Below are positions 23,223 to 62,373 of a stretch of DNA of 64,000 bases, in pieces. Position 1 is the first letter of the stretch; each line of letters begins with the position of its first letter. The translations under genes were made by a program, and so were the position numbers. Below the pieces are notes generated by a model, which was not told the origin of the DNA, ran no database searches, and saw only the letters and a program-made list of their open reading frames with translations. The DNA is from Lunularia cruciata (lineage: Eukaryota > Streptophyta > Marchantiopsida > Lunulariales > Lunulariaceae). The stretch lies in the NCBI GenBank assembly GCA_948567375.1, contig OX419761.1, positions 47,282,243 to 47,346,242 of the forward strand. Reading direction: 5' to 3'.

Positions 23223-24283
23223 TGTCACGCCATTTGTAGTTCCACATCTAGATGCTCGGAAACTGGAGTTCCAGTAATAGTAGTCAGAGTTGTTCTAGCA
23301 GTTTCTCAGAGACTACTTTCCGACGGTTAGATTTCATGTTCAGGGTACTGACTTCATGGTGGGGCCCACCGTCACTTTGCACCATTTGCACCGTCGAGTG
23401 TGCCGTCAGTGGGACCGTTAGGGTTTCAGTGCTAGCTCGAGTCCAGGGGGTATAGTTTTGAAGTGAGCTCCACAGAGCTCACTTCTTTGATGTTGAGCCT
23501 TCGAGTTCCTGGCTATGGTGTACAGAGGCCGGCAAGCGTCACTTGGATTCTCTATGCTTGAGTGGGTGTGGCTTGATTGTAATCAATGCCCAATTGTTGG
23601 CAGTTTATAGAGTGACAGATCAAGTACTGATCTGAGTTGAGTTGAGTTGAGAGTGGTAAGCAATCTGATTACATCAGAGAAGTGAAGTAAGGGGGAATTC
23701 GGGTGCAGGAACTATGAGTGTTGGTAGTATCTCCAAGCTCGGTGGATCGTTGGTAGCTCGATTCAAGTTCTGTGTTTCCCTAGTGTACAGAAGCTCGTTC
23801 AGTTGATGCAGATTTGGTAGTTAGGCGGATGGTGTGCGGAAGCGCTGGCCAAATTTTGAGCAAAGAAGGAGCAATTTTTGAGTAGTGGTTGTGAATTTGA
23901 GCTCAAGAGGTGAAGGCAGGACCAATTTGCTGCAAGTTGGGCTCAGAAAGTCAAATTGAAGGTGGAGTTAGGAAGCTCTTCTCATGAAATTGTGATTTGG
24001 AAAAACCCGTTTTGTCAACTTGGCTTGAGTGGAAAGTTAGCGGGGGATTTGGCAGACAACCATTTTTAGGGTTTACGTCAGATTTTACATCAGATTTTGG
24101 TTGGGATTTATGTCAGATTTTGGCCAGAATTGGAGGAGTTTTTGCTGTTTAGCCAGATTTGGAGGAGTTTCGCTAGTTTGGAGGACTTTTGCAGATTTGG
24201 AGAAGTTTTGCCAATGTTGGAGGAGGTTCAAAGTGGCAACAAGAAAGGCCTCATTTGGCTGAATTTTGGTGTTTCAAAAAATA
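23223..24283 (+). repeat. B-host 5' LTR, first part
   Basis: It begins TGTCACGCCATTTGTAG inside the chromodomain region of element C. The first ~440 bp match the 3' LTRs at 54510-54967 and 38716-39153 and the B1 5' LTR at 47979 downward. The later part matches the B1 5' LTR up to about 24195 (GGAGGACTTTTGCAG). The last ~88 bp before element A (24196-24283) do not match B1 and are unexplained. Confidence 0.75.
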
Positions 24284-24675: not shown

Positions 24676-24694
24676 TCAAAACTGCAACGACAAA

Positions 24695-34203: not shown

Positions 34204-34212
34204 GGGAGGGGG
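34202..34212 (+). promoter_or_regulatory. Polypurine tract of element A
   Basis: GAGGGAGGGGG directly before TATGTAGTGCC, the start of the 3' LTR. It primes plus-strand synthesis. Confidence 0.85.
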
Positions 34213-34214
34213 TA

Positions 34215-37981: not shown

Positions 37982-38607
37982 GAGGCATAGGGCTATGAGA
38001 GGCTACAAAGGCCTAGAAGGGCCAGCAAGCCAGCTTGATGGCGTGAGGCTAGCTAGTTTAGAGTAGATCTTGGTCATTGGTTGGCAAAATCTGCCTTTCT
38101 TGCTAGATTGTGCGCAACAGGGTTTGACCCCTAGATCTCTTGTTCCTTGATTGGTGCCCTAGCCAACTGGTCCACCCTCACTTGTTGTCTTAGTGACTGT
38201 GCCAGTGTTATCTATACATATGTAGCTTTGGCTAGGAGAGGCAGTTTGATCTCATTCTTGGTGATCCTAGTAGCTTAGGACTTAGATACGAACTGCTCTT
38301 ATATCAAATGCCAAATGGTGGCAGAGTCAATCCCGTGTTGTGTTGTGAGATGGAGGGTTTTCGTTTAGATTTCTTGTGATTGGATCCCCTCCATTCTTTA
38401 CTTCTTGTTTGTGCACCACGTTTGTGTGAGGTGCCTTGACTTTTGAGTGTTGGTGCTCTGGTGTGCTCTCGGTGGTGAGGCAAAAGTGATGACCAGTCAG
38501 ACTACCTTTGTTTCTTTTTGGTGAGGCAGGAAGTGATGACCTGCAGACCGTGAGAGTGCGTGTTATGATGGCAGATTACAGGTTGCCCTTTCTCCTAGTG
38601 TAGTTAT
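37982..38607 (+). repeat. B-host 5' LTR remainder, primer-binding region and leader
   Basis: It matches the B1 copy at about 46385-47015 read on the minus strand. The 5' LTR seems to end at about 38313 (AAATGCCA), followed by TGGTGGCAGAGTC at 38316-38328, a weak match to the initiator-tRNA-Met primer site used by most plant Ty3/gypsy elements. The leader is interrupted at 38607 by B1, leaving TTAT at 38604-38607. Confidence 0.65.
38118..38176 (-). repeat. tRNA-like segment inside B-host 5' LTR
   Basis: Read on the minus strand: GGTGGACCAGTTGGCT resembles an RNA polymerase III A box and, about 35 nt on, GGGGTCAAACCC resembles a B box, with A/B spacing as in a tRNA. The same segment is present in B1 at 46809-46866. 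It is probably a tRNA-derived SINE head taken up by the LTR; it lacks a credible full cloverleaf. Confidence 0.5.
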
Positions 38608-39153
38608 TGTCATGCGTATATACATTGCTACACAACATACATTGCTGTCAATATCATACACTATAGAAGCACAACTCACACATAAGTCATACATAGACTC
38701 TAAAGTGCCACAATAATCAGATTGCTTACCACTCTCAACTCAACTCAACTCAGATCAGTACTTGATCTGTCACTCTATAAACTGCCAACAACTGGGCACT
38801 GATTACAGTCAAGCCACACCCACTCAAGCATAGAGAATCCAGGTGATGCTTGCCGGCCTCTGTCCACCATAGCCAGGAACTCAAAGGCTCAACATCAGAG
38901 AAGTGAGCTCTCTGGAGCTCACTTTGAAACTATACCCCCTGGACTTGAGCTAGCTCTAAAACCCTAATGGTCCCGCTGACGGCACACTCAAGGATGCAAA
39001 GTGACGGTGGGCCCCACCGTGAAGTCAGTACCCTGAACACAAAATCTAACCGTCGGAAAGTAGTCTCTGAGAAATTGCTAAAATAACTCTAACTACCATC
39101 ACTAAAACTCCAGTGTCCGAGCATCTAGATGCAGAACTACATATGGTGTGACA
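38608..39153 (-). repeat. B1 3' LTR (546 bp) with duplicated end segment
   Basis: On the minus strand it starts TGTCACACCATATGTAG at 39153. Its first ~438 bp (to 38716) match the 5' LTR. It then switches, at CTGATTA, into segment S (38715-38608), which ends GCATGACA. A second S copy (39262-39156) lies just before the LTR. The 5' LTR has no S and continues quite differently for almost 900 bp. Confidence 0.75.
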
Positions 39154-39429
39154 GCTGTCGTGCGTATATACATTGCTACACAACATACATCGCTGTCAAC
39201 ATCATACACTATAGAAGCACAACTCACACATAAGTCATACATAGACTCTAAAGTGCCACAATCGCCTCCCTAGCTGGCGGTTAGGTCCCTCTAACTCCAG
39301 ATAGCCATCTTCTCTAAGTATATGGTATACCCTCTAATGGGCAAAGATCAGGAGGCTGGGTGCTATGGAGCCCCATTGTCAGTCGCCTATCTGCAATTTA
39401 TACCATATAAAGAATGAACTAGCTATAGG

Positions 39430-40985
39430 TCAAGTACATCTAGGACATAACCACTGTCCCAGAGGAACCACCATGAGGGGAGGAGTCATACATGCCATAT
39501 GCCATCCTCTCAAACAGCTATCACACACTAACATAGTAGCAGCTCTACTAGAAGAGCCACATAACATACACCTCAAGCCTGCACGTACGAGTGCCAAGCT
39601 TGGGTCCATAGTACCATCAATGTTTGGGAGGTGGCATGGCACACAATTGCGCACATGATCCTTCCAAACAACACCATCCCGTCCTTCTAACACAAGGACT
39701 CTAGATGGCAAAACCTCGCACACTCTCAAGATAGTGCGGCCTATAGAAACATCAAGTGTCGTTGGTGCTATCTGCTGTAGATATGCATAATCACCTGGAT
39801 GAAATCAACGGATCAAGGGTTTATAACCTCCTCCTTGAATGGTAGCATAGCGTAAAGTATCTCTATGCTAAGCAATCGCTAAGTTCTTAATGGCCATCGG
39901 CATCACTCTTCAAAAGATCTCTGCCCGTTGAGAACATGCGCTCATCCATACATTGGGGTCATCCAAGTCAAAAACTACAGTAGCATCTAGACAAATGGCT
40001 GTAGGTAAATCTGGATCTCGTCCATAGAGTAGAAAGTATGGAGAGAAGGATGCTAAGAAGGCTTGTCGGCTGAACCGATAGCCCATGGCCAACCAAGGTA
40101 ATTGGAGATCCTAATCTCCCAAGTGGCCTCTCTGCAAACCATACTTTTGCAATCCTCTCTTCACCGTCTGATCCACTCTCTCTGCTAAGCCATCTGCCTC
40201 AGGGTGATCTTGGGATGTAGTATGATGATCAATCAAAGCCTTGTCACACAAGACCTGAAACTCCCCCAAGAACTCTGTACCCTGATCAGTCAAAACCTTA
40301 GCTGGTGCACCAAAATGACTAAGAACTTGATCCAGGAACGAGTAAGCTGTCCCTTCACTAGACTTGTCAAGAAGTGCCACCAACTCAATCCACTTGGAGA
40401 AGTGCTCCACCATCACCAAAACATACCGATGATGTCTCACAGTCAACGGTAAAGGTCTGGCAAAGTCCAAACTCCAATGGTAACCCAATCCCATGATAGG
40501 TAATGGGTGTAACTGTGGCGTAGGAGCATTTAATGATGCTCTAACTCGGTCACAAACCACACATCTGGCAACAAACTGCTGTACCTCTGTCTGCATACCG
40601 CGCCACCAATAATGACTCTGAAGCAAACTATACGTACACTTTACTCCAAAATGTCCTAGCTCCTCATGAGCATGACGGACCAACTGTGATCTCTAAGATG
40701 GAAGTGGTACTACTCGCACTCTACCATCCTCCCATACATGCAAAAAGTGTCTACCCTCCAATCTGAACCGTCTGGCTTGCTAAAGAACACGGTCTCTCTC
40801 CTTGGCCCTAACTGTGCCACCCACAACACCAGTGTGAAGATAGTCCATCACTAAGACATCATCATGAATGTCTTGCTGAACTGTACCAATATCTTCACTC
40901 TCTGGATCTGTGACCTCAATAACTCCTCTTGTATGCGCTGAGAGAGATACCACCAAAGCCTCTACAAATATACACAGAAAGGCAG
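39430..40985 (-). pseudogene. B1 integrase with C-terminal PHD finger
   Basis: One frame with a few TAG stops (for example at about 40108). The zinc-binding region HAHEELGHFG...CVVCDR is at about 40675-40545. The core is at 40683-40111, with acids in SLDFA, LTDQGTEF and DGLAERV. The C-terminal part (39729-39430) has RVLVLEG(R/D)DGVVWKDH and then a C4HC3 zinc finger: CMLC, 11 residues, CDSC, LRGW, H, two residues, C, 14 residues, CPRC, and the stop at 39430-39432. This spacing and the WH(M)AC phrase are those of a PHD finger, which in known proteins reads histone H3 tails. It occupies the place of the chromodomain. The linker at 40690-40985 is poorly conserved. All eight PHD ligands are present. 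Confidence 0.85.
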
Positions 40986-41059
40986 ATGCATGTTAACCTG
41001 GCACCATCTCCTCATTTGTCTCACCATGCCAACTTGCTCCGGTTTGATCCTGCTGGCTA

Positions 41060-42858
41060 GGACATGGGTTTCTACTCAACCCATCTGCATCACGGTTCAC
41101 CACTCCAGGTCTATGAACAATCGTGAAATCATACTCCTATAAAATCAGAGCCCATCGTGCAAGCTTCCCCGAAAGCTTGTCGGACTCCATCAACCACTTC
41201 AGCGGCTAATGATCAGTGATGAGAGTGAAGGGGTTACCAAATAGGTAACATCGGAAATGTGCTACTGCCCAAACTGCTGCCAAGCACTCTCCCTCATATG
41301 AACTATACTTCGCCTCCGCTGAATTGTTGGAGCGACTAGCATAGGCCACCACAAACTCCTTCTCCTCATCATCATGCTGGGTGAGCACCGTTCCAAGCCC
41401 CAACATACTCCAATCAGTGTGAACCTGGAATGGTCGTCCCCTGATCGGTCTCCTCAAAATAGGAGCAGATGTCAACCTCTCCTTGAGCTCTACAAAAGCT
41501 CTCTCCTCCTCATCTCCCCAACACCACTCATGTGTAAGCTTGGTCAGCTTCATCAAGGCCTTGGCAATGGCACTAAATCCTCTAACATAGCGGCGATAGA
41601 AGTTTGCCAACCCAAGGAATGCTCACACTCTGCTCACATCCGTAGGCCGAGGAATATGTGCAATAGCCTCCACCTTGGTCTGCTGGACACCAAGTCCTCC
41701 GGGGTAGATAGTGTGACCCAAATACTCAACCTACTCGTGGAAGAACCTACACTTCCCAGGATGTAATTTGAGGCCATGAGATCTCAACCTCTCAAACACC
41801 TCCAACAACTGTCTTTCATGCTCTTCCACAATAGTGCTATAAACCAAAATGTCATCAATATAGCACCGAGTAAAATCCAATCCAGCTAGGATCCTATCCA
41901 TGACCCTCTGGAACTCAACAGGAGCGTTCTTTAACCCAAATGGTAAGAACCTCCACTGATATAACACATCCTTGCCGTGAGGATCAATAGCCCAAAATGT
42001 TGTCTTGGACTTATCCTCCTCCTTGATCGGCAACTGATGATATCCCGCTCAAAGATCCAAAGTACTGAAGACCTTTGCATGCCTAATTGCATCAAAAATC
42101 TCCTCTGGTATAGGCAAGGCATACCGATCAGCCCTAATCTGTCGGTTGGTAGGACGGTAATCTCCACACATCCGCCTATTTGTATAGTTGCCATGCGTAT
42201 CCTTCTTGGCTGGCATCACTATCGCTGATGCGTACTCTCCATGTGAAATCTCTACCAAACCAACCTCAAAAAGGTCACTACTCTGGCTCTAAATCAATGT
42301 CCTCTCCATATCACTATATTGATAAGGACGTCTGAAAACTGGTGTGTTGCTAGTCAGCTCAATCCATATATCAAGTCCCTTCAAAGCACCCAAATCCTTC
42401 ATACTGAAGGCAAAACAACTCGTGTGACTTCTCAAGAACCTCCAAACCCTCAGTCTTTCCTCTCCAGTAAGCTTGGGTCCAAGATCTGGTTCCCAAGTAT
42501 CCTCTGTAACTGCAGTAGGAGTGGAAGACGTACTAACTGACTGCTACATTGGGCCCTTGGGAGCAATAGTATCATGCTCCCGACCACTAGAGGTCCCAAC
42601 CTCTGTGTGAAAAATTCCCTCCACTCTGGCTGCAAGCTCCACACGTCCTCTGGCTGCATCCCATGTGGACCAAGGGTGTAATCCAAGTAGCCCACGCTCA
42701 CCTGGATGGACTCCAAGTAGACCACTCTCCCTAGTAGCTACAGGATGTGTCCCAAGAATACCATGTTCACTTGGTCCATCGCCCCCAGCATGTGCCTGAA
42801 TCGTCTCAATAGGCACAGGGCTCACAAGTGTCAAAGTGGTGATGCCTATCAAGCGCAT
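41060..42858 (-). pseudogene. B1 linker, reverse transcriptase and RNase H
   Basis: Same frame as the integrase. The linker (42858-42545) follows the methyltransferase and contains three near-repeats GILGTHP, GLLGVHP, GLLGLHP (about 42765-42668). RT: ISHGEYASAIVMPAKKD, CGDYRPTNRQ, FLPFGLKNAP and the intact catalytic YIDDILVYS at about 41870. RNase H: VHTDWSMLGLGTVL (DWS where DAS is usual), ASRSNNSAEAKYSSYEGECLA, ITDHQPLKWL, and HRPGVVNRDADGLSR. In-frame stops at 42052 (TGA, within LDL-AGYHQ), 41623 (TGA) and 41137 (TAG) are shared with B-host, the last also with B4. Confidence 0.85.
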
Positions 42859-42899
42859 CCTACGCTGCTAAGCCAAGGCAAGGCTAGTAATCCAGGTCA

Positions 42900-44220
42900 A
42901 ACAGTTCATGTCCATAGCCTGACCTAACACCTAACGCTTGGATGCCTCTGACACTGCTGGAACAGTGGTAATACCGGTGCGAAAACCCATTGCCCGCTCT
43001 CTCTCATCAGCGTTGGGCTCCACCAACTGCTGTAACTGTGAGTCCCAAACAAGTCCAAGTCCTCCCTCTCGAAAAGCATGAGAGCCTATGAAACTCATGA
43101 GTGTAGGAAATGCAGCTCTAGGCTGTCCAACTAGGTTCACCACTGCCATAGGTGACCTATCAGCCACTACCACTATCTCAGACTGACGCCCAACATCCAA
43201 GATATCATCAACAAGAATGTGGTCTAGTCGTTGAATCCCATCATAACTATGCTGTAGAACCTCTCTGGGTAAGAGGTTCGTCCACCAAAGACAAAGACAA
43301 TGAGCCCGTGATCCCACTCTGGCTGCATCTAACAATACGGTAGGTCCCATCCAAGAATGGACCTGATGTGTACTCGCCACCACTCTAGTGCGAGAATCAC
43401 CCATCAAAGGAACGTTCTCCAAAAGGTAAGTTGGAGAAATAAACTGATGAACCTGGAGATGTTGTAGTATCCGTAACATCTCCCAAAACACACCAGAACA
43501 AGGATCTTGAAGACCCAAACCACGGCCCACACGTGTATGTCCCTAACATGGCCATCCAGAAATCACCAAGTGAATAGGCCTATGTCTCTCTAGGTCATGC
43601 GCCCCCAGTAAGGAAATATCTCCTGGTAAGGCCTTTTGGTAACCTCTGACTGCTGACATTGGTAATAACTCCGGATACCGATAGGCCAAGTGTGCCACAT
43701 GATGTAGAGAGACTCGCTTAGTAGTCTCATCTCTCTCTACATATAAGTACCTCTATACTCGGATACCCGCTTGTAACACCGCAGCTAGTCCAGTGCTGAT
43801 CCCACCAAACAACTCCAATAGGCATATCCCCTCTACTGGATACTGCCAAGCAATGAGTGTGGTATCCAAAGGTGTCAAAGCAATTGCCTCTAGAGGCTCA
43901 TCCTCACACTCATCTCTTGATGGTACAAAGGCTCCACTCCAAGCATGCTGCACCAACTGATCTGCATGCTGCTGCAATGCCTCCTCTGAACTCCACAATG
44001 GAACATCCAAGGTGGATGGAACAATCCCACTCGTACTCCAAAGCCGAGTGATCTCCACTGGTACAGGAGTATCCTCTGCATGTGCATTCCTCTCCAACAA
44101 GTCACCAGGCCAAGTAACTGCACCACTGAAAGCTAAAACTGATGCGGCCATGGTCCTGGACTGTAGTGAGCCAAGACTGCCACTACTGAAGCATACTGGT
44201 AGGCAACATACCCGTCCCTC
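42900..44220 (-). pseudogene. B1 C5-cytosine DNA methyltransferase domain inside pol
   Basis: In frame between protease and RT, two open pieces (44151-43753, 43530-42931) plus the part between read as a C5-DNA methyltransferase. Motif I, ELFGGISTGL (43815-43786), binds S-adenosylmethionine. Motif II, RYLYVERDE, is near 43740. Motif IV, VISGWPC, has the catalytic Cys codon at 43546-43548. GRGLGLQDPCSGVFWEM follows. Motif VI, LLENVPLMG, has ENV at 43419-43411. Motif VIII, SRAHCLCLWWTNL (43311-43270), normally has AHRxR. Motifs IX/X appear as EPNADERERAMGF and RQVLGQAMDL (43030-42910). The order is canonical, as in DNMT3 and DNMT1, not permuted as in plant DRM. DNMT3-like features (RYxxxE, SRAHR.R.WW) suggest a DNMT3-type origin. 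Stops follow position V of GIRV (43753) and the catalytic Cys (43543), and two Arg codons became Cys, so this copy is inactive. The segment at 44150-43820 before motif I is unrecognised. Confidence 0.87.
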
Positions 44221-44249
44221 ACCAGACTACCAACCAGGTCTATAAGAGG

Positions 44250-45109
44250 TTGTCTCCTCCCAATAGTCAATGCTGAAACACATGGGGTATAACACTGCTC
44301 CCCCAACTAGCACATCATATGACTCAGCTATCATCGCAATAATCTGAGCTCTCACCACCGAGCTATCAGTTGGATGACTAGGCTGAACCTGGACAACAAG
44401 CTCTCCACGTGTGATGTACTATGTTGAACCACCACCAAGAGATGTCTGGATCTGAAATGGACATCTCTCCACATCGGTCTTCCGTAACTCCAGACCGACA
44501 ACTACAGCCCTCCCCAACATAAGGGGCTGCGTGCCAGAGTCTAACAAGACTCTTTGTGGTGTATAGACCTTCCCTGAAGGTCCCACCAAACAAAAAATCC
44601 CCCTCTAGTTATCCAATAGGACAACACCAGGTGTAAACCGCGCTCTCTCAAAGGCTGGTCTAGCTTGGCAACTCCTCCAGTCTAGCCGTTGCTGCCTGCC
44701 ATAAACCACTGGTCGCTGAACGGAACCCATGCTCCTCAACCAAGTCAGCTCCACTACCAACCACCTCTGCTCTAGTAGTAGGAACCGCACCATCCCTACT
44801 CTCACACAACGTGGCAGCCAACCAAAACACTGGGGCTAGGTCAACTCCCAATGTAAACATGTCATTGGCTGAAAACAAAGGATACCGCATAATCAGCTGA
44901 GCCGCCCCCAACATCATGCTAGACTCAGTTTGTGTAGTAGTAGGTGGCTGACTAGCAGGTAGTCCATCATGTACTCCATCACCACCTACCACACCTGCAC
45001 TGGGACATCTAGGAACCATGGATGTCGTCTGCAATGCCTCAGATAGCGTGAAAGATTGGGGAAGTCTGACTTGTCTCCCAACCTCTCTTCTCTGTGGGTC
45101 CAACTCCAC
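44250..45109 (-). pseudogene. B1 aspartic protease region
   Basis: The protease active site is RVLLDSGTQPLMLG, with DSG at 44541-44533, followed by LVVQVQPSHP and the C-terminal phrase ESYDVLVGGAVLYPM. DSGT is a valid retroviral-type active site. The region before it (45109-44660) is the gag-protease connector; a frameshift near 44660 moves from that frame to the pol frame. Immediately after LYPM a conserved SIDYWEETTSYRPGW leads into the methyltransferase segment without leaving the frame. Confidence 0.75.
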
Positions 45110-46332
45110 TTATGCTCCTCTAGGCTCTAGAGCACGTACTGCACTCCTAGTCATTGCTGCAGATGCATCCACTTGTGCTGCTCCGCACATGAAGTCCAAA
45201 GCATCTCTATCACCAGCATATGAGGTGGAAGCCTCAGCATCCAAATCTGATCTCCTCTGAGCAATAGCCATACTAGCCAATCTCTGCTCCAACTGCTCAA
45301 TCCGAGTAGCCATAGCTGTGTTAGAAGTAAGGGCATGTACTGCACCCCTACTAGGTGTAGATCCTCTACCACCACCTCTACTACCTTGTCCTCCATGAAT
45401 TGGAGCTCCTCTACTACCTGCCATAGCAGCTCTACCACTCCGTAACTCCGGGTGTAGGTCAAAACACCGGTCACTAGTGTAACCAAATCTGTGGCAGTGC
45501 TCACACTACCTCTGTGCTGGTTGTGATGCACCAAAGGTATCAAGTCCACTGCCTTGAGTACACTCTCTCCGATGGTGAGGTCCACCACAAGTCCAACAAG
45601 CAACACCACCACTCACAGGCTGCTGCGCACCCAAAAATGAGGGTAAGGGTCTAACTCCACTAGGCCCTCTACTCGCTCCATAGGATCTGGGCTATCCACC
45701 CTGTCCTCAAAAACCAACTGGGTGTGGTGCACTCTACTGCACTCTAGAAGAAGTCACAGCCGTGGATGAGGTCTCCCTACCAAATCCAGATGTCACCACT
45801 CTCTCCTCCACCATGTTGAGCTCAATACACTCAACCAAACCAAAGACTAATGCCAAAGTGGGCGAAGTAGCCTGCAACAACATAGCATCACAAACTCTAC
45901 GTTGCAACTCCTTGTCTAGTATCCCATACCAAAATCGGACTGCCTGGGCCTCAATAACTCCTTGAGTGAAACTGATCAGCCACCTCATGCGAGTATATGC
46001 CTCGCATAGGCTCTCTTCCCATAAATCTCATCCATGTCCTACAACAACGGTGCGGACACACCAAGTGCACTCTCAACTGAATCAGCTCCTGTGTCAAACT
46101 CCAACTCAGAGTCAATCTCCTCTCTCACTAGGACGTGAGATACATGCTGATACCGAGCACCACTCCGAGTAAACCCACTGCGTACTGCAGGGCTTACTCC
46201 TCTGGAATCTCCAAAAAACTCCGTCGTGACAAAGTAACCACACCAACAAACCCAAACCACCAACTGCAACCGCAAGTTGTAACCGCAAGTACCCCACCAA
46301 CTGCCAACACCACCACGTGCCAACACCACCAA
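45110..46332 (-). pseudogene. B1 gag with internal deletion
   Basis: It matches B-host gag (48031-49785) but lacks about 0.5 kb, corresponding to roughly 48345-48857 there, joined near 46016. Remaining pieces: 46332-46039 (N-terminal part), 45988-45734 (capsid-like, VFGLVECIELNMVEERV), the zinc-knuckle region near 45600-45480 with stops, and 45424-45110. The deletion changes the frame. Not functional. Confidence 0.7.
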
Positions 46333-46673
46333 GTGCCAATACTAACTAAGCACCACCCACTAATGTAACTCTAACCGAGATAACTACACTAGGGGAAAGG
46401 GCAACCTGTAACCTGCCATCATAACATGCACTCTCACGATTTGCAGGTCATCACTTCCTGCCTCTCCGGAGAGAAACAAAGGTAGTCTGATCGGTCATCA
46501 CTCCAGCCTCACCACTGAGAGCACACTAGAGCACCAACGCTCAAAAGTTAGGGCACCTCACACAAATGTGGTGCACAAACAGGAAGCAGAGAATGGAGGG
46601 AGTCCAATCACAAGAAATCTAAATGAAAACCCTCCATCTCATAACACAACACGGGACTGACTCTGCCATCATT

Positions 46674-47979
46674 TGGCATTGACATAAGAGGAGTTCGTAT
46701 CTAAGTCCTAAGCTACCAAGATCACCAAGAATGGGATCAAACTGCCTCTCCTAGCCAAAGCTACATGTGTATAGATAACAGTGGCACAGTCACTATGACA
46801 ACAAGTGAGGGTGGACCAATTGGCTAGAGCACCAGTCTAGGAACAAGAGATCTAGGGATCAAACCCTATTGCGCACAATCTAGCAGGAAAGGCAGATTTT
46901 GCCAACCAATGACCAAGATTTACTCTAAACTAGCTAGCCTCACGCCAGCAAGTTGGCTTGCTGGCCCTTCTAGGCCTTTGTAGCCTCTCATAGCCCACCG
47001 CCCTATGCCTCAAAGCCTCCTGCAAAAATCCTCCAAACTAGCGAAACTCCTCCAAATCTGGCCAAATAGCAAAAATTCCTCCAATTCTGGCCAAAATCTG
47101 ACGTAAAATCTAACGTAAAATCTGACCTAAACCCTAAAGATGGTTGTCCGCCAAATCCCTCGCTAACTTTCCACTCGAGTCAAATTGACAAAACGAGTTT
47201 TTCCAAATCACAATTTCATGAGAAGAGCTTCCCAACTCCACCTTCAATTTGACTTTCTGAGCTCAACTCGTAGCAAATTGGTACTGCCTTCACCTCTTGA
47301 GCTCAAAATCACAACATTGCTCAAGAATTGCTCCTTCTTTGCTCAAAATTTGGCCAGTGCTTCCGCACACCATCCGCCTAACTGCCAAATCTACATCAAC
47401 TGAACAAGCTTCTATACACTAGGGAAACACTGAACTTGAATTGAGCTACCAACGATCCACTGAGCTTGGAGATACTACCAACACTCATAGGTCTTGCACC
47501 CGATTTCCCCCTGACCTCACTTCTCTGATGAAATCAGATTGCTTACCACTCTCAACTCAACTCAACTCAGATCAATACTTGATTTGTCACTCTATAAACT
47601 GCCAACAACTGGGCACTTATTATAGTCAAACCACACCCACTCAAGCATAGAGAATCCAGGTGACGCTCACCGGCCTCTGTCCACCATAGCCAGGAACTCG
47701 AAGGCTCAACATCAAAGAAGTGAGCTCTCTGGAGCTCACTTCAAAACTATACCCCCTGGACTTGAGCTAGCTCTAAAACCCTAACGGTCCTGCTGACGGC
47801 ACACTCTACAGTGCAAATGGTGCAAAGTGATGGTGGGCTCCACCGTGAAGTCAGTACCCTAAACACGAAATCTAACCGTCAAAAAGTAGTCTTTGAGAAA
47901 TTGCTAGAATAACTCTAACTACCATCACTGGAACTCCAGTGTCCGAGCATCTAGATGCGGAACTACAAATGGCGTGACA
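46674..47979 (-). repeat. B1 5' LTR (about 1306 bp)
   Basis: On the minus strand it starts TGTCACGCCATTTGTAG at 47979 and seems to end at about 46674 (AATGCCA). A weak initiator-Met-like primer site, TGATGGCAGAGTC, follows at 46671-46659. It is far longer than the 546-bp 3' LTR of the same element, sharing only the first ~440 bp. The leader 46673-46380 follows. Confidence 0.65.
46809..46866 (+). repeat. tRNA-like segment inside B1 5' LTR
   Basis: TGGACCAATTGGCTAGAGC (46812-46830) fits an A box (TRGCNNAGYNGG-like), and GGATCAAACCC (46856-46866) fits a B box, at tRNA-like spacing. It is the counterpart of 38118-38176 in B-host, on the strand opposite to the element. It is probably a SINE-derived piece rather than a working tRNA gene. 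Confidence 0.5.
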
Positions 47980-48030
47980 TTATCTCGGTTAGAGTTACAT
48001 TAGTGGGTGGTGCTTAGTTAGTATTGGCAC

Positions 48031-49785
48031 TTGGTGGTGTTGGCACGTGGTGGTGTTGGCACGTGGTGGGGTACTTGCGGTTGCGACTTGCGGTTGCAGT
48101 TGGTGGTTCGGGTTTGCTGTTGTGGTTACTTTGTCACGACGGAGTTCTTTGGAGATTCCAAAGGAGTTAGCCTTGCAGTACGCAGTGGGTTTACTCAGAG
48201 TGGTGCTCGGTATCAGCATGTATCTCACGTCCCAATGAGGGAGGAGATTGACTCTAAGTTGGAGTTTGACACAGGAGCTGATTCAGTTGAGAGTGCACTT
48301 GGTGTGTCTGCACCGTTGTTGTGGGAGATGGACGAGATTTATGGGGCCTCCAAAGGCCCTAGGCATTACTCTGGTATAGTGGGTACCATTGAGTTGGATG
48401 ACTTCATCCAAGAGTTAGACAGTTGGTATGATTTGCAACAGATGCGAAACCCGACTTTGTTCACACCCTTCATGGCATGGAAGGGGTTGTTTCAGCACTT
48501 GGAGGGTCCGCCAATGGATGACTACCATGAGTTCAGGAGAGCTCATTTGGAGGAGATTGAGTTATGGAGATAGTATTGGTCTCCACATTATGTCTCCATC
48601 ACTTCAGGCTCGGTGGCCAGGAGTAGATCGGCTGTACCCACGAGTTCTAGCTCGAGTAGTGTTGGTGGAGCTAGTGGAGGTGCACTAGCTGGAGATAGTG
48701 CTAGTACAAGTGGAGGTACCGCTGCAGGAGGTGGTGTGGTACCGGGGTTTAACCCCATGGTGGAGTTCTTTCTATGTTTGAGGCAGAACTACCAGGGAGT
48801 GCGGACTGACAAGCTGAGGAGCTTGCAGGAGTTCCAGCGAAAGGCTGCAAAGATCCTACATGAGGCATACACTTGCATGAGGCGGCTGATCAGTTTCACT
48901 CATGGAGTTAATGAGGCCCAGGCAGTCCAATTTTGGTATGGGATACTCGATAGGGAGTTGCAACGTAGAGTTCGTGATGCTACGTTGTTGCAGGCTACTT
49001 CGCCCACTTTGGCAATAGTCTTTGGTTTGGTTGAGCGTATTGAGCTCAATATGGTGGAGGAGAGAGTGGTGACATCTGGATTTGGTAGGGAGACCTCATC
49101 CACAGCTGTGACTTCTTCTAGAGTGCAGCAAAGTGCACCACGCCCAATTGGTTTTTGAGGACAAGGTGGACAGCCCAGATCCTATGGAGCGAGTGGAAGG
49201 CCTAGTGGAGTTAGACGCTTACCCTCATTTTTGAGTCAGCAGCAGCCAGTGAGTGGTGGTGTTGCTTGTTGGACTTGTGGTGGACCTCACCATCGGAGAG
49301 AGTGTACTCAGGGCAGTGGACTTGATACCTCTGGTGCATCACAGCCAGCACAGAGGCAGTGTGAGCATTGCCACAAATTTCGTCACACTAGTGACCGGTG
49401 TTTTGACCTACACCCGGAGTTACAAAGTGGTAGGGCTGCTATGGCAGGTAGTAGAGGAGCTCCAGTTCATGGAGGACGAGGTGGTAGTAGAGGATCTACA
49501 CCTAGTAGGAGTGCAATACCTGCCCTTACTTTTGACACAACTATGGCTACTCGGATTGAGCAGTTGGAGCAGAGATTGGCTAGTATGGCTATTGCTCAAA
49601 GGAGATCAGATTTGGGTGCTGAGGCTTCCACCTCATATGCTGGTGATAGAGATGCTTTGGACTTCATGTGCGGAGCAGCACAGGTGGATGCATCTGCAGT
49701 AGTGACTAGGAGTGCAGTACGTGCTCCAGAGCCTAGAGGAGCATCAATGGAGTTGGACCCACAAAGAGGAGAGGTTGGAAGATAG
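48031..49785 (+). pseudogene. B-host gag
   Basis: A single frame with stops at 48571 (TAG) and 49156 (TGA), and TAG at 49783. The N-terminal region leads into MDEIYGASKGPRHYSG and LEGPPMDDYHEFRRAH, a Ser/Gly linker, then a capsid-like helix region (LRSLQEFQRKA, AQAVQFWYGILD, VFGLVERIELNMVEERV). Two Cys/His knuckles follow: CWTCGGPHHRREC (about 49267, one residue short) and CEHCHKFRHTSDRC (about 49363, canonical CX2CX4HX4C). It is complete in length where B1 has a deletion. Confidence 0.75.
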
Positions 49786-50607
49786 GTCAGACTTCACCAG
49801 TCTTTCACGCTATCTGAGGCATTGCAGACGACAACTATGGTTCCTAGACATCCCAATGTAGGTGTGGTAGGTGGTGATGGAGTACATGATGGACTACCTA
49901 CTAGTCAGCCACCTGCTACTATAGAGACTAAGTCTAGCATGATGTTGGGGGCGGCTCAGCTGATTATGCAGCGTCCTTTGTTTTTGGCCAGTGATATGTT
50001 TACATTGGGAGTTGACCCCGCCCCAGTATTCCGGTTGGCTGCCATGTTGTGTGAGAGTAGGGATGGTGTAGTTCCTACTACTAGAGCAAAGGTGGTTGGT
50101 AGTGGAGCTGACTTGGTTGAGGAGCATGGGATCCGTTCAGCGACCAGTGGTTTATGGCAGGCAGCAATGGCTAGACTGGGGGAGTTGCCAGCTAGACCGG
50201 CTTTTGAGAGAGCGCGGTTTACACCTGGTGTTGTCCTATTGGATAACCAGAGGGGGATTTTTTGTTTGGTGGGACCTTTAGGGAAGATCTATACACCACA
50301 AAGAGTCTTGTTAGAATCTAGTGCGCAGCCTTTTATGTTGGGGAAGGCTGCAGTTGTCGGTCTGGAGTTACGGAAGACCAATGTGGAGAGGTGTACATTT
50401 CAGATCCAGATATCTCTTGGTGGTGGTTTGACACAGTACATCACACGTGGAGAGCTTGTTGTCCAGGTTCAGCCTGGTCATCCAATTGATAGCTCGGTGG
50501 TGAGAGCTCAAGCTATTGCGACGATAGCTGAGTCATATGATGTGCTAGTTGGGGGAGCAATGTTATACCCCATGACTATTGGGAGGAGACAGCCTCTTAT
50601 AGACCTG
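49786..50607 (+). pseudogene. B-host protease region
   Basis: It continues the gag frame from 49822. The active-site triad is lost: LLESSAQPFMLG, with the codons at 50314-50322, where B1 has DSGT. The C-terminal phrase ESYDVLVGGAMLYPM is conserved. The reading ends at the deletion that removed most of the methyltransferase (about 50607). Confidence 0.75.
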
Positions 50608-50810
50608 GACTTGTTTGGGACTCATAGTTACAGCAGTTGGTGGAGCCCAACGCTGATGAGAGAGAGCGGGCAATGGGTTTTCACATCAATATTACCGTTG
50701 TTCCAACAGTGTCAGAGGCATCCAGGCATCAGGTGTTAGGTCAGGCTATGGACTTGAACTATTTGACTTGGATTGTGAGACTTGGCTTGGCAGAGCAGCG
50801 TAGAATGCGC
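50608..50810 (+). pseudogene. B-host methyltransferase remnant (motifs IX-X only)
   Basis: At AGACCTG/GACTTG the sequence jumps, relative to B1, from about 44235 to about 43056. Roughly 1.18 kb with motifs I to VIII is missing. What remains is LVEPNADERERAMGF and HQVLGQAMDL, the target-recognition end and motif X. In the pol frame the tail still runs into the linker and RT. Confidence 0.8.
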
Positions 50811-52600
50811 TTGATAGGCATCACCACTCTGACACTTGTGAGCCCTGTGCCTATCGAGACAATTCAGGCACATGCTGGGGGCGGTGGACCGAGTGGACAT
50901 GGTATTCTTGGGACACATCCTGTAGCTACTAGGGAGAGTGGTCTACTTGGAGTCCATCCAAGTGAGCGTGGACTACTTGGATTACACCCTTGGTCCACAT
51001 GGGATGCAGCCAGAGGACGTGTGGAGCTTGTAGCCAGAGTGGAGAGAGTTTTTCACACAGAGGTTGGGACCTCTAGTGGTTGGGAGCATGACACTATTGC
51101 TCCCAAGGGCCCAGTGTAGCAGTCAGTTAGTATGTCTTCCACTCCTACTACAGTTACAGAGGATACTTGGGAGCCAGATCTTGGACCCAAGCTTATTGGA
51201 GAGGAAAGACGGAGGGTTTGGAGGTTCTTGAGGAGTCGCACGAGTTGTTTTGCCTTCAGTATGAAGGATTTGGGTGCTCTGAAGGGACCTAGTATACGGA
51301 TTGAGCTGACTAGCGACACACCAGTTTTCCGACGTCCTTATTGATATAGTGATATGGAGAGGACATTGATTCAGAGCCGGAGTAGTGACCTTTTTGAGGT
51401 TGGTTTGGTGGAGATTTCACATGGAGAGTATGCATCAGCGACAGTGATGCCAGCCAAGAAGGATATGCATGGCAACTATACAGATAGGTGGATGTGTGGA
51501 GATTTCCATCCTATCAACCAACAGACCAGGGCTGATCGGTATGCTATGCCTACACCGGAGGAGATTTTTGATGCAATTGGGCATGCAAAGGTCTTCAGTA
51601 CTTTGGATCTTTGAGCGGGATATCATCAGTTGCCGATTAAGGAGGAGGATAAGTCCAAGACAGCATTTTGGGCTATTGATCCTCATGGCAAGGATGTGTT
51701 ATATCAGTGGAGGTTCTTACCATTTGGGTTAAAGAACGCTCTTGTTGAGTTCCAGAGGGTCATGGATAGGATCCTAGCTGGATTGGATTTTGCTCGGTGC
51801 TATATTGATGACATTTTGGTTTATAGCACTATTGTGGAGGAGCATGAGAGACAGTTGTTGGAGGTGTTTGAGAGGTTGAGATCTCATGGCCTCAAATTAC
51901 ATCCTGGGAAGTGTAGGTTCTTCCACGAGCAGGTTGAGTATTTGGGTCACACTATCTACCCCGGAGAACTTGGTGTTCAGTAGACCAAGGTGGAGGCTAT
52001 TGCACGTATTCCTTGGCCTACGGATGTGAGCAGAGTGTGAGCATTCCTTGGGTTGGCGAACTTCTATCGCCGCTATGTTAGAGGATTTAGTGCCATTGCC
52101 AAGGCCTTGACGAAGCTAACCAAGCTTACACAAGAGTGGTGTTGGGGAGATGAGCAGGAGAGAGCTTTTGTAGAGCTCAAGGAGAGGTTGACATCTGCTC
52201 TTATTTTGAGGAGACCAATCAAGGGACGACCATTTCAGGTTCACACTGATTGGAGTATGTTGGGGCTTGGAACGGTGCTCACCCAGCATGATGATGAGGA
52301 GAAGGAGTTTGTGGTGGCCTATGCTAGTCGCTCCAACAATTCAGCGGAGGCAAAGTATAGTTCATATGAGGGAGAGTGCTTGGCAGCAGTTTGGGCAGTA
52401 GCACATTTCCAATGTTACCTATTTGGTAACCCCTTCACTCTCATCACTGGTCATCAGCCGCTGAAGTGGTTGATAGAGTCCGACAAGCTTTCGGGGAAGC
52501 TTGCACAATGGGCTCTGATTTTATAGGAGTATGATTTCACGGTTGTTCACAGACCTGGAGTGGTGAACCGTGATGCAGATGGGTTGAGTAGAAACCCATG
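50811..52600 (+). pseudogene. B-host linker, reverse transcriptase and RNase H
   Basis: The same frame as B1 pol, with more stops (for example 51117, 51343, 51612, 51981, 52038 and 52524). The linker shows GILGTHP, GLLGVHP and GLLGLHP. RT motifs GEYASATVMPAKKD, FLPFGLKNA and YIDDILVYS are intact; RNase H has VHTDWSMLGLGTVL and HRPGVVNRDADGLSR. It is about 95 percent identical to B1 by eye. Confidence 0.85.
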
Positions 52601-54233
52601 TCCCAGCCAGCAAGATCAAACCGGAGCACGTTGGCATGGTGAGACAAATGAGGAGATGGTACCAAGTTGGCATGCATCGGCCTTTTTGTGTATATTTGTA
52701 GAGGCTTTGGTGGTATCTCTCTCAGCGCATACAGGAGGAGTTATTGAGGTCACAGATCCAAAGAGTGAAGATATTGGTACAGTTCAGCGAGACATTCATG
52801 ATGATGTCTTAGTGATAGACTATCTTTGCATAGGTGTTCTGGATGGCACAGTTGGGGCCAAGGAGAGAGACCGTGTTCTTCAGCGAGCCAGACGGTTCAG
52901 ATTGGAGGGTAGACATCTTTTGCGTGTATGGGAGGATGGTAGAGTGCAAGTAGTACCACTTCCATCACAGAGACCACAATTGGTTTGTCATGCTCATGAG
53001 GAGCTAGGACATTTTGGAGTAAAGCGTACGTATAGCTTACTCCAGAGTCATTATTGGTAGGGCGGTATGTAGACCAAGGTACAGCAGTTTGTTGCAAGAT
53101 GTGTGGTTTGTGACCGAGTTAGAGCATCATTCAATGCTCCTACGCCACAATTACTCCCATTACCTATCATGGGATTGGGTTACCGTTGGAGTTTGGACTT
53201 TGCCGGACCTTTACCACTGACTGTGAGACATCATTGGTATGTTTTGGTGATGGTGGAGCACTTCTCCAAGTGGATTGAGTTGGTGGCACTTCCTGACAAG
53301 TCTAGTGAAGGGACAACTTAATCGTTCGTGGATCGAGTTCTTAGTCATTTTGGTGCACCAGCTAAGGTTTTGACTGATCAGGGTACAGAGTTCTTGGGGG
53401 AATTTCAGGTCTTGTGTGACAAGGCTTTGATTGATCATTGTACTACATCCCGAGATCACCCTAAGGTAGATGGCTTAGCAGAGAGAGTGGTTCAGACGGT
53501 GAAGAGAGGATTGCAAAAGTATGGTTTGCAGAGAGGCCACTTGGGAGATTGGGATCTCCAATTACCTTGGTTGGCCATGGGCTATCGGTTCAGCCGGCAA
53601 GCCTCCTTAGCATCCTTCTCTCCATACTTTCTACTCTATGGACAAGATCCAGATTTACCTGCAGCCATTCATCAAGATGCTACCGTAGTTTTGGACTTAG
53701 ATGACCCTGATGTATGAATGAGCGCATGTTCTCAACGGGCAGAGATCTTTCAGAGAGTGATGCCAATGGCCTTTGAGAACTTGGCAATTGCTCAGCATAG
53801 AGATACTTTACGCTATGCTACCATTCAAGGAGGAGGTTATAGACCTTCAATCCGTCGATTTCATCCAAGCAACTTTGTATATCTACAGCAAACAGCATCA
53901 ATGACACTTGATGTTTCTACAAGCCGCACTATCTTGAGAGTGCGTGAGGTTTTTCCATCTAGAGTCCTTGTGTTAGAAGGACGTGATGGTGTTGTTTGGA
54001 AGGATCATGTGTGCAATTGTGCGCCATGCCACCTTCCAAACGTTGATGGTACTATGGACCCAAGCTTGGCACTTGTACGTGCAGGCTTGAGGTGTATGTT
54101 ATGTGGCTCTTTTGGTGGAGTTGCTACTATGTTGGTGTGTGATAGCTATTTGAGAGGATGGCATATGGCATGTATGACTCCTCCCCTCACGGCGGTTGCT
54201 CAGGGACAGTGGTTATGTCCTAGATGTACTTGA
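52601..54233 (+). pseudogene. B-host integrase with damaged PHD finger
   Basis: Integrase zinc motif HAHEELGHFG...CVVCDR, core acids in SLDFAGPLP, LTDQGTEF and DGLAERV, then RVLVLEGRDGVVWKDH. The PHD finger reads CMLC, CDSY, WHMAC, CPRC: the fourth zinc ligand is Tyr instead of Cys, so the finger is probably broken in this copy. Stop codon 54231-54233. Other stops (near 53058, 53070, 53319 and 53715) show decay. Confidence 0.8.
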
Positions 54234-54509
54234 CCTATAGCTAGTTCATTCTTTATATGGTATAGATTGCAGACAAGCGATTAACGATAGGGCTCCATAG
54301 CACCCGGCCTCCTGATCTTTGCCCATTAGAGGGTATACCATATACTTAGAGTAGATGGCTATCTGGAGTTAGAGGGACCTAACCGCCAACTAGGGAGGTG
54401 ATTATGGCACTTTAGAGTCTATGTATGACTTATGTGTGAGTTGTGCTTCTATAGTGTATGATGTTGACAATGATGTATGTTGTGTAGCAATGTAAATACG
54501 CACGACAAT

Positions 54510-55059
54510 TGTCACGCCATTTGTAGTTCCGCATCTAGATGCTCAGACATTGGAGTTCCAATGATAGTAGTTAGAGTTATTCTAGCAGTTTCTCAAAGAC
54601 TACTTTCTGATGGTTAGATTTCATGTTTAGGGTACTGACTGACTTCACGGTGAGGCCCACCATCACTTTGCACCATTCACACCGTTGAGTGTACCGTCAG
54701 CGGGACCGTTAGGGTTTTAGTGCTAGCTCAAGTCCAGGGGGTATAGTTTTGAAGTGAGCTCCAGAGAGCTCACTTCTCTGATGTTGAGCCTTTGAGTTCC
54801 TGACTATGGTGGACAGAGGCCGGCGAGCGTCACCTGGATTCTCTATGCTTGAGTGGGTGTGGCTTGACTGTAATCAATGCCCAATTGTTGGCAATTTATA
54901 GAGTGACAGATCAAGTACTGATCTGAGTTGAGTTGAGTTGAGTTGAGAGTGGTAAGTAATCTGATTATTGTGGCACTTTAGAGTCTATGTATGACTTATG
55001 TGTGAGTTGTGCTTCTATAGTGTATGATGTTGACAGCGATGTATGTTGTGTAGCAATGT
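54510..55059 (+). repeat. B-host 3' LTR, truncated by about 13 bp
   Basis: It starts TGTCACGCCATTTGTAG at 54510. The shared part runs to 54967 (CTGATTA), then segment S follows (54968-55059). An S copy precedes the LTR at about 54400-54507. The end matches B1 up to TAGCAATGT and then passes directly into Copia-2 sequence, so the terminal ~13 bp (GCATGACA end) are lost. Confidence 0.75.
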
Positions 55060-57822: not shown

Positions 57823-60470
57823 ATGGGTATTATAGGCCATATGTGTTTGGGAAGGCAAGGACCAATTATCATTGATTGAGGCTTCTCAAAATAATCACTG
57901 TGATATTTTTGCAATATTCTTTTGTCTGTAATGGTAGGGAGCTAAGAACTCATGCTAACAGCCACAAGCCCGTAAGAATTCCATTAGATGTTGTCCACCA
58001 AATTTATTGCCATTATCAATATGAAGTTCAAATATAGATGATTGATATTATATCTCTATAAACTTCAAAGAGTTGAATAGTTGAAAGGGCTTGAGTCTTG
58101 TTGGAAATAAACACTATCCACCTATAGTGAGAAAAATCTTCAATAAATAAAAGATAATAGTGCTTATTTCCAATTCCAATTGTGGATATTTTCCCATATT
58201 TAACATGGAGAATCATTTAGAAGGGATGAGGAACTCTTGTATGGTGGGCTTGACATATTATGTGGCTTGATTTTGCCAATTGGCATGCTTTGAATGGCAA
58301 AAATGGTATAGAATGATTGACTAAGATGTCTTCTTGTAGGAGTAGTGCACATAAGCCATTAATGTGAAAATGTGAAAAGCATAAATGTAAGATATCAATG
58401 TCATTAGACAACCTTGGAAGCTAAAGTGCTTGATGCGTAGCCAATGAAGGTCCATATGATACAAAAGATCAATCAAAGAAGGAGCTTGAACCAGGAAATA
58501 TTTCAAACCATATTTCTTATGGATAATAGCAAACTCTATTTCTAATGGAAGGTGAAAAATTGGTCTGATTCACCATGCCGTTGTTCCTTTCAAGGATATC
58601 TTGAAAGAAAGTGTTGAGAAAACTAGAAGATGTGTATATTACATTAACAACTATAATGAGTTGAAAGTTCCCCTTAGGAGCATTAGATTGATGGGGATAT
58701 AGTGCTCTTACCAAATGAGATGACTTCACCACTACCCATAGGGATAGGAAAGGGATCAGCGAGATACTCACCAAACATTGTTTGGTCATTGCAAAAATGA
58801 TGGCTAGCTCTTAAATAATTTATCCACACATTAGAGTGAGCTTGATTCTATAGGTGAGTAATTGCATAGCCAAATTGGACATAAAAGGAAGGAAAAATAT
58901 AAGAGTCAGAGGTAGGTGGAGGAACTAATGATGAATAACAAGACATTGGCGGATCAGGCTGAGTATCTCTAGAACACGTTCCCATCCTTCATGACAAAGC
59001 TTAAGGTAAGCATAAAGGCACTAGGCTGCAGAATGGTTAGGGAGATGGCAGTCCACACAAATCTCAACCTTCCTATGGTGTGGATGCTAGACCCAAGAGC
59101 TTGAAGCAATCTGTTGCAATTGAGGTGTAGCATGTAATGGAAAACTTTGTGTTTCTTGCATTTGTAGAGTAGCTCAATCATAATGTTACTTAGATCTATC
59201 AATGACCTCATCGATCAAAGAAGCCAAGGATGGATAATGGTTTGTATCCCTTTGCAATTGATCGCATTTATTAATTGTCCAATGCTCAAAATGTGGGTCT
59301 AAAATTATTAGAAAATGTAAGACCTAGACATTCTTAGGATTGACAATTCCTAAATTGTTTGATACTTAACACATAACTCCTCTATTACCTCTCCTTCATC
59401 TTAACACTTAGCAAAGTTGTTGTGCACATATACATCACTACACAATAAACATTATTTTCAACATCATACACTATAAAAGCACAAGTCACACATAAAATAC
59501 ATGAACTCTAAAGTGCCACAATAACCAATTTATTCCACAATAACCAATTTATTCTTCAACTTGAATCACACTCAAATCGTATCTTTATTCAATTCTTTGC
59601 TCAACAATCTACCAACAATTGGACAGTTATTATAGTCAAACCACACTCACTCTAGCTAAGAGACTCCATGTGATATTCATGTGTCCTCTATCTACCATAG
59701 CCAAGAACTTGAGGCTTAACATCAAAGAAGTGAGCTCTTTGGAGTTGCACTTCAAAGATATATCCCTTTGCTCAACTTAGGTTTCCAGCCCTCATGGCAT
59801 CACTAATGGCAGATTTGATAGAGTGAACAATGCAAGTGACAAGGGGTCCTACCATGTGATTAGTAATCCTATCATGAAACTAGACCACCAACAAGTAGTC
59901 CATGAGTAACTACCAAATACATATGACTACCAACACTTCCACACCAACATCAAGCAAACTAGCTTTGATGCTACAGATGTCATGATAGTTTTCATGCATA
60001 TATAGATTGCTACATAACATATATCAGTGTCAACATCATAGATTATAGAACACAACTCACACATAAGTCATACATGAACTCTTAAGTGCTACAAATGCCC
60101 TTAGCTCACGGTTAGGTCCCTCTAAATCTGGATAGCCATCTACTCCAATTATGTGATATGCCCAATAGTGGGTAAGAAGCCGAGTGCTATCAAACCCCAT
60201 CGTTGGTTGCATGTCTACAATCTATATCACATAAAGAGCGAACTAACTATAGGTCAAGTAATTCTAGGACTTAACCATTGTCCTTGAGGAACACACCATG
60301 AGAGAAGGAGTCAAACATACTATATGCCATCCTCTCAATTAGCTATCATACACCAACATAATAGTAGCTCTACTAGAAGAGCAACATAATATACACAACA
60401 AGGCTTCACTTACAAGTGCCAAGCTTGGGTATATAGTACCATCAATGTTTGGGAGGTGGTATGGTGTATA

Positions 60471-60475
60471 ATTGT
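60471..60475. repeat. Target-site duplication ATTGT (left)
   Basis: Matches ATTGT at 62369-62373 on the other side of the solo LTR. Joining the flanks restores the B-family phrase around ACAATTG(T/C)GCACATG that B1 shows at about 39649. Confidence 0.85.
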
Positions 60476-62368: not shown

Positions 62369-62373
62369 ATTGT

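What the first reader, a model, noticed from the sequence alone, without database searches (positions are those of the whole stretch)
42900..44220. DNA methyltransferase domain captured inside the pol polyprotein of a Ty3/gypsy retrotransposon
Seen: on the minus strand, in the same reading frame as the upstream protease and the downstream RT, B1 encodes ELFGGISTGL, RYLYVERDE, VISGWPC, LLENVPLMG, SRAHCLCLWWTNL and motifs IX/X in canonical order. Known: these are the C5-cytosine methyltransferase motifs I, II, IV, VI, VIII and IX/X; retrotransposon-borne methyltransferases have been reported, as far as I recall, in charophyte algae and dinoflagellates. Inferred: the element could methylate its own new DNA copies or influence host silencing; a DNMT3-like origin fits best. 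The combination with a PHD finger (see next finding) would make it an element that both writes and reads chromatin marks.
Basis: partly seen in the sequence, partly recalled or inferred. Interest (0 to 1): 0.95.

Follow-up and report, generated by a model that had tools for sequence, protein, structure and literature searches.

The report
Decayed retrotransposon carrying DNA methyltransferase
This stretch is a broken copy of a jumping gene, related to ones in liverworts, mosses and green algae, whose better-kept relatives carry a DNA-methylating enzyme and a histone-reading finger; it is a known but rare kind of element, and the enzyme seems here to be made together with the coat protein.

Summary
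B1 is a complete but dead element (38608-47979, minus; TG...CA ends; 4-bp TTAT duplication) nested in copy B2. Its methyltransferase frame has four stops and lacks both motif VIII arginines; B2 lost the domain by a 1.2-kb deletion. Relatives come from liverworts, Sphagnum, Closterium and metagenomes; 106 of 113 near-full-length domains keep the catalytic cysteine. Sequence and predicted fold are nearest DNMT3A/B.

The kind is known: KnitGypsy-Dnmt3 of Klebsormidium (PMC5890265), whose DIRS-like A-coding-B-A-B repeats recur here. Beyond the text I read: the domain ends the gag-protease ORF, before a UAG-CAR-YYA (TMV-type leaky stop) in B1, B2 and distant relative L056, so the enzyme should be made at Gag level; a PHD finger ends the integrase and diverges in step with the methyltransferase; the repeats go with a DDE integrase and target duplication.

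Best reading: packaged enzyme methylates the new DNA copy and the PHD steers integration. Neither activity nor readthrough was tested; KnitGypsy-Dnmt3 showed none in yeast (inconclusive). New variant of a known kind.

The parts
38608..47979 (-). Whole element B1, 9372 bp, ends TGTCACGCC...GCATGACA
   Evidence: Junction sequences and nested insertion in B2
38604..38607 (.). Target site duplication TTAT, left copy
   Evidence: the single site is readable in B1's own leader at 46380-46383
47980..47983 (.). Target site duplication TTAT, right copy
47532..47979 (-). Repeat A, 5' copy
   Evidence: 410 of 439 aligned bases identical to the 3' copy
39156..39262 (-). Repeat B, inner copy; purine tract AGGGAGGCG just upstream
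   Evidence: 104 of 107 identical to the outer copy; purine tract
38715..39153 (-). Repeat A, 3' copy, joined to inner B by two extra bases
38608..38714 (-). Repeat B, outer copy, right end of the element
44594..46015 (-). Gag region (frame -1)
   Evidence: tblastn with Marchantia P0153, residues 169-620
44230..44676 (-). Protease region (frame -2) with LLDSG, interrupted by stops
   Evidence: Alignment to P0153 and motif; no Pfam protease match in B1
42868..43836 (-). DNMT3-like C5-cytosine methyltransferase domain (approximate bounds), four in-frame stops; its frame runs 44226-42544
   Evidence: PF00145 on read-through; relatives; motif places
42544..42546 (-). UAG ending the gag-protease-methyltransferase ORF
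   Evidence: Same place in B2 and L056
42538..42543 (-). CAGTCA after the UAG: CAR-YYA readthrough consensus
   Evidence: 1 of 207 TAG triplets of B1 has it; consensus in PMC2754532
40972..42495 (-). Reverse transcriptase and RNase H
   Evidence: PF00078, PF17919, PF17917; tblastn
40111..40692 (-). Integrase, H2C2 finger and DDE core
   Evidence: PF17921 E 1.7e-16, PF00665 E 9.4e-13
39436..39570 (-). PHD finger at the end of the integrase
   Evidence: PF00628 E 2.3e-10
47980..55059 (+). Element B2, coding part and 3' repeats; methyltransferase core deleted
23223..24194 (+). Element B2, repeat A and start of the leader, cut off from the rest by a giant-LTR insertion
   Evidence: 91.3% to 47020-47979
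37990..38607 (+). Element B2, rest of the leader, up to the B1 insertion
   Evidence: 570 of 617 identical to B1's leader
51117..51125 (+). UAG-CAG-UCA of B2
59417..64000 (-). Third copy B3, cut by the window end before the methyltransferase region

Best explanation
B1 is a dead, nested copy of a Ty3/gypsy retrotransposon family laid out A - leader - gag-protease-DNMT - UAG(CAR-YYA) - RT-RNase H-integrase-PHD - B-A-B. The methyltransferase is DNMT3-like and travels with the element. Shown: layout, domains, repeats, target duplication, conservation in relatives. Inferred: most ribosomes stop at the UAG, so the enzyme is made and packaged with Gag, while a few percent read through to make RT, integrase and PHD; in the particle or on nuclear entry the enzyme methylates the finished double-stranded copy, which enters the genome already marked; the PHD, most like fingers that (from memory) bind the unmodified H3 tail, holds the integrase on chromatin lacking H3K4 methylation, as chromodomains do for chromoviruses.
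Confidence: 0.6

Rival explanations
1. The enzyme acts mainly on the host genome or on other copies: expressed with Gag, it silences the family and limits its own spread, which keeps the host alive.
For: B1 and B2 bear the mark of past cytosine methylation: 362 transitions to 66 transversions, C to T at 14-17% of CG sites against 5% of CH sites. The authors of PMC5890265 raise such a braking role.
Against: Host enzymes silence elements without help, so decay does not say who methylated; the CpG ratio of B1 and B2 (0.38, 0.40) is no lower than in window bases 1-23000 (0.36), and the higher ratio of the giant-LTR element (0.73) may only mean youth.
Confidence: 0.2
2. The domain methylates RNA, or serves as a nucleic-acid or SAM-binding packaging factor rather than as a DNA methylase.
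For: Inactivity of KnitGypsy-Dnmt3 in yeast; the motif IV context of the family is WPCQGHT/S rather than the SPCNDLS of DNMT3A.
Against: Catalytic set largely conserved and fold nearest DNMT3; DNMT2 scores far lower by profile.
Confidence: 0.12
3. A host or bacterial methyltransferase gene landed by chance in one retrotransposon copy.
For: Copy B2 lacks the domain.
Against: B2 keeps both flanks of the domain with short microhomology at the break, so it is a deletion; relatives from several plant lineages carry the domain at the same place; divergence tracks the integrase.
Confidence: 0.02

Closest known systems
KnitGypsy-Dnmt3 of Klebsormidium nitens (PMC5890265; abstract, sections 9, 10, 11 and passages read)
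   Same: Gypsy domain set, DNMT3-like unrearranged catalytic domain within the polyprotein, repeat structure described as that of a DIRS element (A-coding-B-A-B)
   Different: Its main text names no PHD and no bryophyte copies, and places the domain in the Pol ORF; here it is on the gag-protease side of a UAG. Its sequence could not be compared (no row so named).
SymbioDIRS-Dnmt3 of Symbiodinium (same paper)
   Same: DNMT3-type domain in a retrotransposon with split direct repeats; CG methylation shown in yeast
   Different: Tyrosine recombinase instead of a DDE integrase
Chromoviruses, and chromodomain- or Tudor-bearing gypsy elements of Ectocarpus (PMC6317226, PMC12477816; passages read)
   Same: Histone-reader module at the end of the integrase or polyprotein
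   Different: Chromodomain or Tudor, not PHD; no methyltransferase in the gypsy passages (an N-type methyltransferase accessory gene is described there for a Sola1 DNA transposon)
Ginger1 DNA transposons (PMC2836005; passages read)
   Same: Gypsy-like integrase with a PHD in one family
   Different: DNA transposon; the PHD comes with a Ulp1 protease domain
TMV-type stop codon readthrough (PMC2754532; passages read)
   Same: UAG followed by CAR-YYA
   Different: Here between gag-protease-methyltransferase and RT; readthrough not measured

Membership tests
C5-cytosine DNA methyltransferase (PF00145) | Profile match above the curated cut-off | tested here: met
   B1 read through 22.3 bits against 22; P0001 42.7, L056 45.9, P0183 30.5
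C5-cytosine DNA methyltransferase (PF00145) | Catalytic motifs IV, VI and VIII intact in this copy | tested here: not met
   B1 keeps PC and EN but has a stop right after PC and neither motif VIII arginine; most of 113 relatives' domains keep them
DNMT3 family | Closest to DNMT3 among solved C5 enzymes, motifs in unrearranged order (unlike DRM) | tested here: met
DNMT3 family | Groups with eukaryotic host DNMT3 in a tree | tested here: inconclusive
   Only human DNMT3A, with a gap, could be included; it falls among the element rows (89/78 with P0047 and P0179) on a very long branch, away from 7 viral-contig enzymes
Ty3/gypsy retrotransposon | Order protease-RT-RNase H-integrase with DDE core and H2C2 finger | tested here: met
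   protease of B1 by alignment and LLDSG only
KnitGypsy-Dnmt3 kind | DNMT3-like domain in a gypsy polyprotein with A-coding-B-A-B repeats | tested here: met
   definition and the legend passages
KnitGypsy-Dnmt3 kind | Methyltransferase in the Pol ORF | tested here: not met
   In B1, B2 and L056 it precedes the UAG that separates it from RT; met only if readthrough is counted as one ORF
KnitGypsy-Dnmt3 kind | Sequence kinship with the Klebsormidium element | not testable with these tools
   No row named K. nitens (120 of 286 listed); paper supplements not readable
DIRS order | Tyrosine recombinase (recalled: no target duplication) | tested here: not met
   DDE integrase and 4-bp duplication
Chromovirus | Chromodomain at the integrase end | tested here: not met
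   PHD PF00628 there instead
TMV-type readthrough signal | UAG-CAR-YYA | tested here: met
TMV-type readthrough signal | Measured readthrough | not testable with these tools
   Needs a reporter assay

The most novel reading that the evidence does not exclude
A retrotransposon lineage of streptophytes that, if inherited vertically, has kept since before liverworts, mosses and conjugating algae parted a matched pair of chromatin tools: a DNMT3-like writer made at coat-protein level through a TMV-type leaky stop and loaded into the particle, and an integrase-borne PHD reader of unmethylated H3K4. Together they would rebuild in one parasite the ADD-DNMT3 logic of animal de novo methylation (recalled), so that new copies arrive methylated and in the chromatin that keeps them so.
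Probability: 0.3. Interest if true: 0.85.

Novelty: new variant of a known kind. Interest (0 to 1): 0.66.

Why it matters
Retrotransposons with cytosine methyltransferases have been described from one charophyte and from dinoflagellates, and why they carry the enzyme is open. The family here reaches well-studied land plants (Marchantia, Sphagnum); one Marchantia protein (P0153) has an open gag-protease-methyltransferase frame that could be tested. Gag-side placement before a leaky stop predicts when and where the enzyme acts (in the particle, at high dose), and the linked PHD makes this a rare element that could both write and read chromatin marks.

Tried and rejected
Search of the window's own genome (genome search) did not complete, so copy number, intact copies and host identity stay unknown. 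A tree with plant DNMT3, CMT, MET1, DRM was not possible: the 3 allowed protein searches returned, as far as names and domains show, element-type proteins; chains labelled DNMT1 or CMT do not appear in the lists (50 rows shown), which excludes nothing. dN/dS among B1, B2, B3 is that of decaying copies and was not used as support. Viral contigs gave 55 loci with best-segment identity 24-53%, the higher values over short stretches, and none for the RT-PHD ORF; of 7 genome loci one (L056, 51% over 318 residues) belongs to the family. L056 is filed under a cyanobacterial MAG and P0027 under another bacterial MAG; I take both for misbinned eukaryotic DNA (inference). Rejected: chance insertion (B2 is a deletion); DIRS membership (DDE integrase). 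The C-terminal stretch of P0196 looked like a second methyltransferase by eye (DPWAGSG...SPW); Pfam and PDB gave no support. Paper searches on which 'not found in print' rests: (open-licence PMC only); one search was on stop-codon readthrough.

Full report
1. Observation. Protease (LLDSG motif), methyltransferase, RT/RNase H and integrase/PHD share frame -2; gag is in frame -1, so this copy has a shift near the gag/protease border. The stop-free pieces match nothing in Pfam, but the frame read with X at stops passes PF00145 just above its cut-off, and relatives match at E down to 1.9e-152. Four stops interrupt the domain frame, and both motif VIII arginines are replaced: this copy is dead.

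2. The element and its neighbours. A self-comparison of the window and junction reading show that B1 is a complete element, 38608-47979, with ends TGTCACGCC...GCATGACA, inserted into a second copy, B2, on the plus strand. The target TTAT is duplicated on both sides, and B1's own leader shows the single site. B2 starts at 23223, is interrupted in its leader by a giant-LTR gypsy-type element (LTRs 24287-28046 and 34220-37981, 3587 of 3758 aligned bases identical; gag, RT and integrase matches), resumes at about 37982-37990, is interrupted by B1, and continues to about 55059, where its last repeat is cut short. A third copy, B3, runs out of the window at 64000. B2 lacks the methyltransferase core but keeps both flanks, with short microhomology at the break (judged by eye): a deletion, not an ancestral lack.

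3. Repeats. The order is A - leader - coding - B - nn - A - B. In B1 the A copies are 410/439 identical and the B copies 104/107. The inner B-nn-A junction reads ACGACA-GC-TGTCAC in B1 and ACGACA-AT-TGTCAC in B2. A purine tract AGGGAGGYG lies just before the inner B in B1 and B2 (weaker in B3), and ATCAGAG just after the 5' A of B1 and B2. de Mendoza et al. describe A-coding-B-A-B as typical of DIRS and say the Klebsormidium gypsy element has the same repeat structure. Here it goes with a DDE integrase and a 4-bp duplication. I infer that reverse transcription starts its plus strand before B and that the integrase cuts at the B-nn-A junction, as if a circle with abutted ends were linearised there; this is a guess.

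4. Relatives. Searches returned 71 (E <= 0.01), 286 (E <= 0.001, 120 listed) and 67 (E <= 1) matching proteins. Named sources include Marchantia polymorpha and paleacea, Calypogeia fissa, Riccia sorocarpa, Sphagnum species, Closterium sp. NIES-54, a short match (16% of the query) in Monoraphidium, and one bacterial MAG; most rows are metagenomic or unnamed. Of 199 sequences compared (197 proteins, L056, B1), 114 covered at least 80% of the domain; among the 113 other than B1, motif I Phe is kept in 86 (20 gaps), motif IV Pro in 98 and Cys in 106, motif VI Glu in 108 and Asn in 107, the motif VIII Arg pair in 102 and 101. In a tree of 64 rows (56 domains left after dropping pieces under 270 residues and rows 80% or more alike, plus human DNMT3A and 7 of 27 outgroup ORFs extracted, all 7 from viral contigs), B1 groups with Marchantia, Calypogeia and four other rows at 97/86, within a 10-row clade at 100/100; element rows and DNMT3A are split from the viral-contig enzymes at 100/100. 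DNMT3A sits on a branch of 2.7 changes per column, so its exact place means little.

6. Where in the polyprotein. L056 (7188 bases held of a 9285-base contig filed under a cyanobacterial MAG) carries a relative with long open frames: gag-protease-methyltransferase (5' open, 1162 residues), one TAG, then in the same frame RT-RNase H-integrase-PHD (1047 residues). The TAG is followed by CAATCA; in B1 and B2 the same site reads TAG CAGTCA. Both fit UAG-CAR-YYA, reported as essential for TMV readthrough (PMC2754532, passages). It is the only such site among 207, 139 and 67 TAG triplets of B1, B2 and L056; in the whole window 3 of 1047 and 2 of 1038 TAGs on the two strands have it. Of 29 relatives of 1000 residues or more with the domain starting after residue 500, 20 end 63-143 residues after the domain with no RT in their Pfam column, three of them marked partial; the other nine run on, end early or are joined gene models. 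So in this lineage the enzyme should be made at Gag level. This differs from 'in the Pol polyprotein ORF'. In other members the place varies: RT-RNase H-DNMT-integrase-PHD in P0183, DNMT-integrase-PHD in P0191 and P0193, DNMT-RT-RNase H-integrase-PHD in P0196, protease-DNMT-RT without a stop in the Closterium protein P0184.

7. PHD. PF00628 follows the integrase in B1 and in L056, P0182, P0183, P0191, P0192, P0193, P0196, P0197; P0054 of Marchantia has it after a stretch that aligns with B1's integrase. The highest-ranked solved fingers include PHF12, CHD4, DPF3, KDM5B, KMT2D, PHF21A and KDM5A; several of these are, from memory, readers of the unmodified H3 tail. In eight elements the pairwise divergence of methyltransferase, integrase and integrase-end/PHD region is correlated (r 0.72, 0.83, 0.91; none of 5000 permutations as high), with two close pairs weighing most, so the parts have travelled together.

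8. Decay. B1 and B2 differ at 428 of 6570 aligned bases, 362 transitions and 66 transversions; C to T at 20 of 145 CG against 55 of 1076 CH sites one way, 23 of 136 against 57 of 1093 the other. That is the print of methylated cytosine, laid by host or element; CpG is just as scarce in window bases 1-23000 (0.36 of expected, against 0.38 and 0.40). dN/dS ranged 0.45-1.29 outside the PHD-only comparisons and 1.3-6.7 for the short PHD; it gives no support for selection on these copies.

9. Known or new. The kind is known (PMC5890265). In nine searches of open-licence papers, in sections 9-11 of PMC5890265, and in passages of PMC12344493, PMC6338049, PMC6317226, PMC12477816, PMC2836005 and PMC5784723 I saw no account of bryophyte copies, of a PHD on a methyltransferase-bearing retrotransposon, or of the leaky stop; figures and supplements could not be read and may hold some of this. 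PMC12344493 says in one sentence that some DNMT3 members lie in LTR Copia and DIRS elements, as reported in 2018. I therefore call it a new variant of a known kind.

Noticed in passing
24287-37981: A gypsy-type element with very long (3.76 kb, 95% alike) terminal repeats that themselves hold open frames of up to 289 residues without Pfam match, inserted in B2's leader; a piece of its LTR also lies inside B3 (60476-61551).
   Followed up: partly
39154-39155 and 54509-54510 (about): The two bases between B and A differ between copies (GC, AT), as at joined element ends; suggests a circular or abutted-end intermediate used by a DDE integrase.
   Followed up: partly
47515-47531 and 23672-23690: ATCAGAG just after the 5' A repeat, part of the plant initiator-tRNA primer site as I recall it, within CTGAT...ATCAG.
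   Followed up: no
P0196 residues after about 1420 and the P0193 C-terminal end: Beyond the PHD, some metagenomic relatives have a tail with strings such as DPWAGSG and SPW resembling an N-type methyltransferase; no profile or PDB support for P0196.
   Followed up: partly
L056: A DNMT-PHD element with long open frames in a contig filed as a cyanobacterial MAG (CADCWO010000201.1): probably misbinned eukaryotic DNA.
   Followed up: no
2073-2780 minus: Mitochondrial carrier protein frame (PF00153), a likely host gene that could name the species.
   Followed up: no
20648-22808: Another decayed gypsy-type RT and integrase, distant from B1.
   Followed up: no
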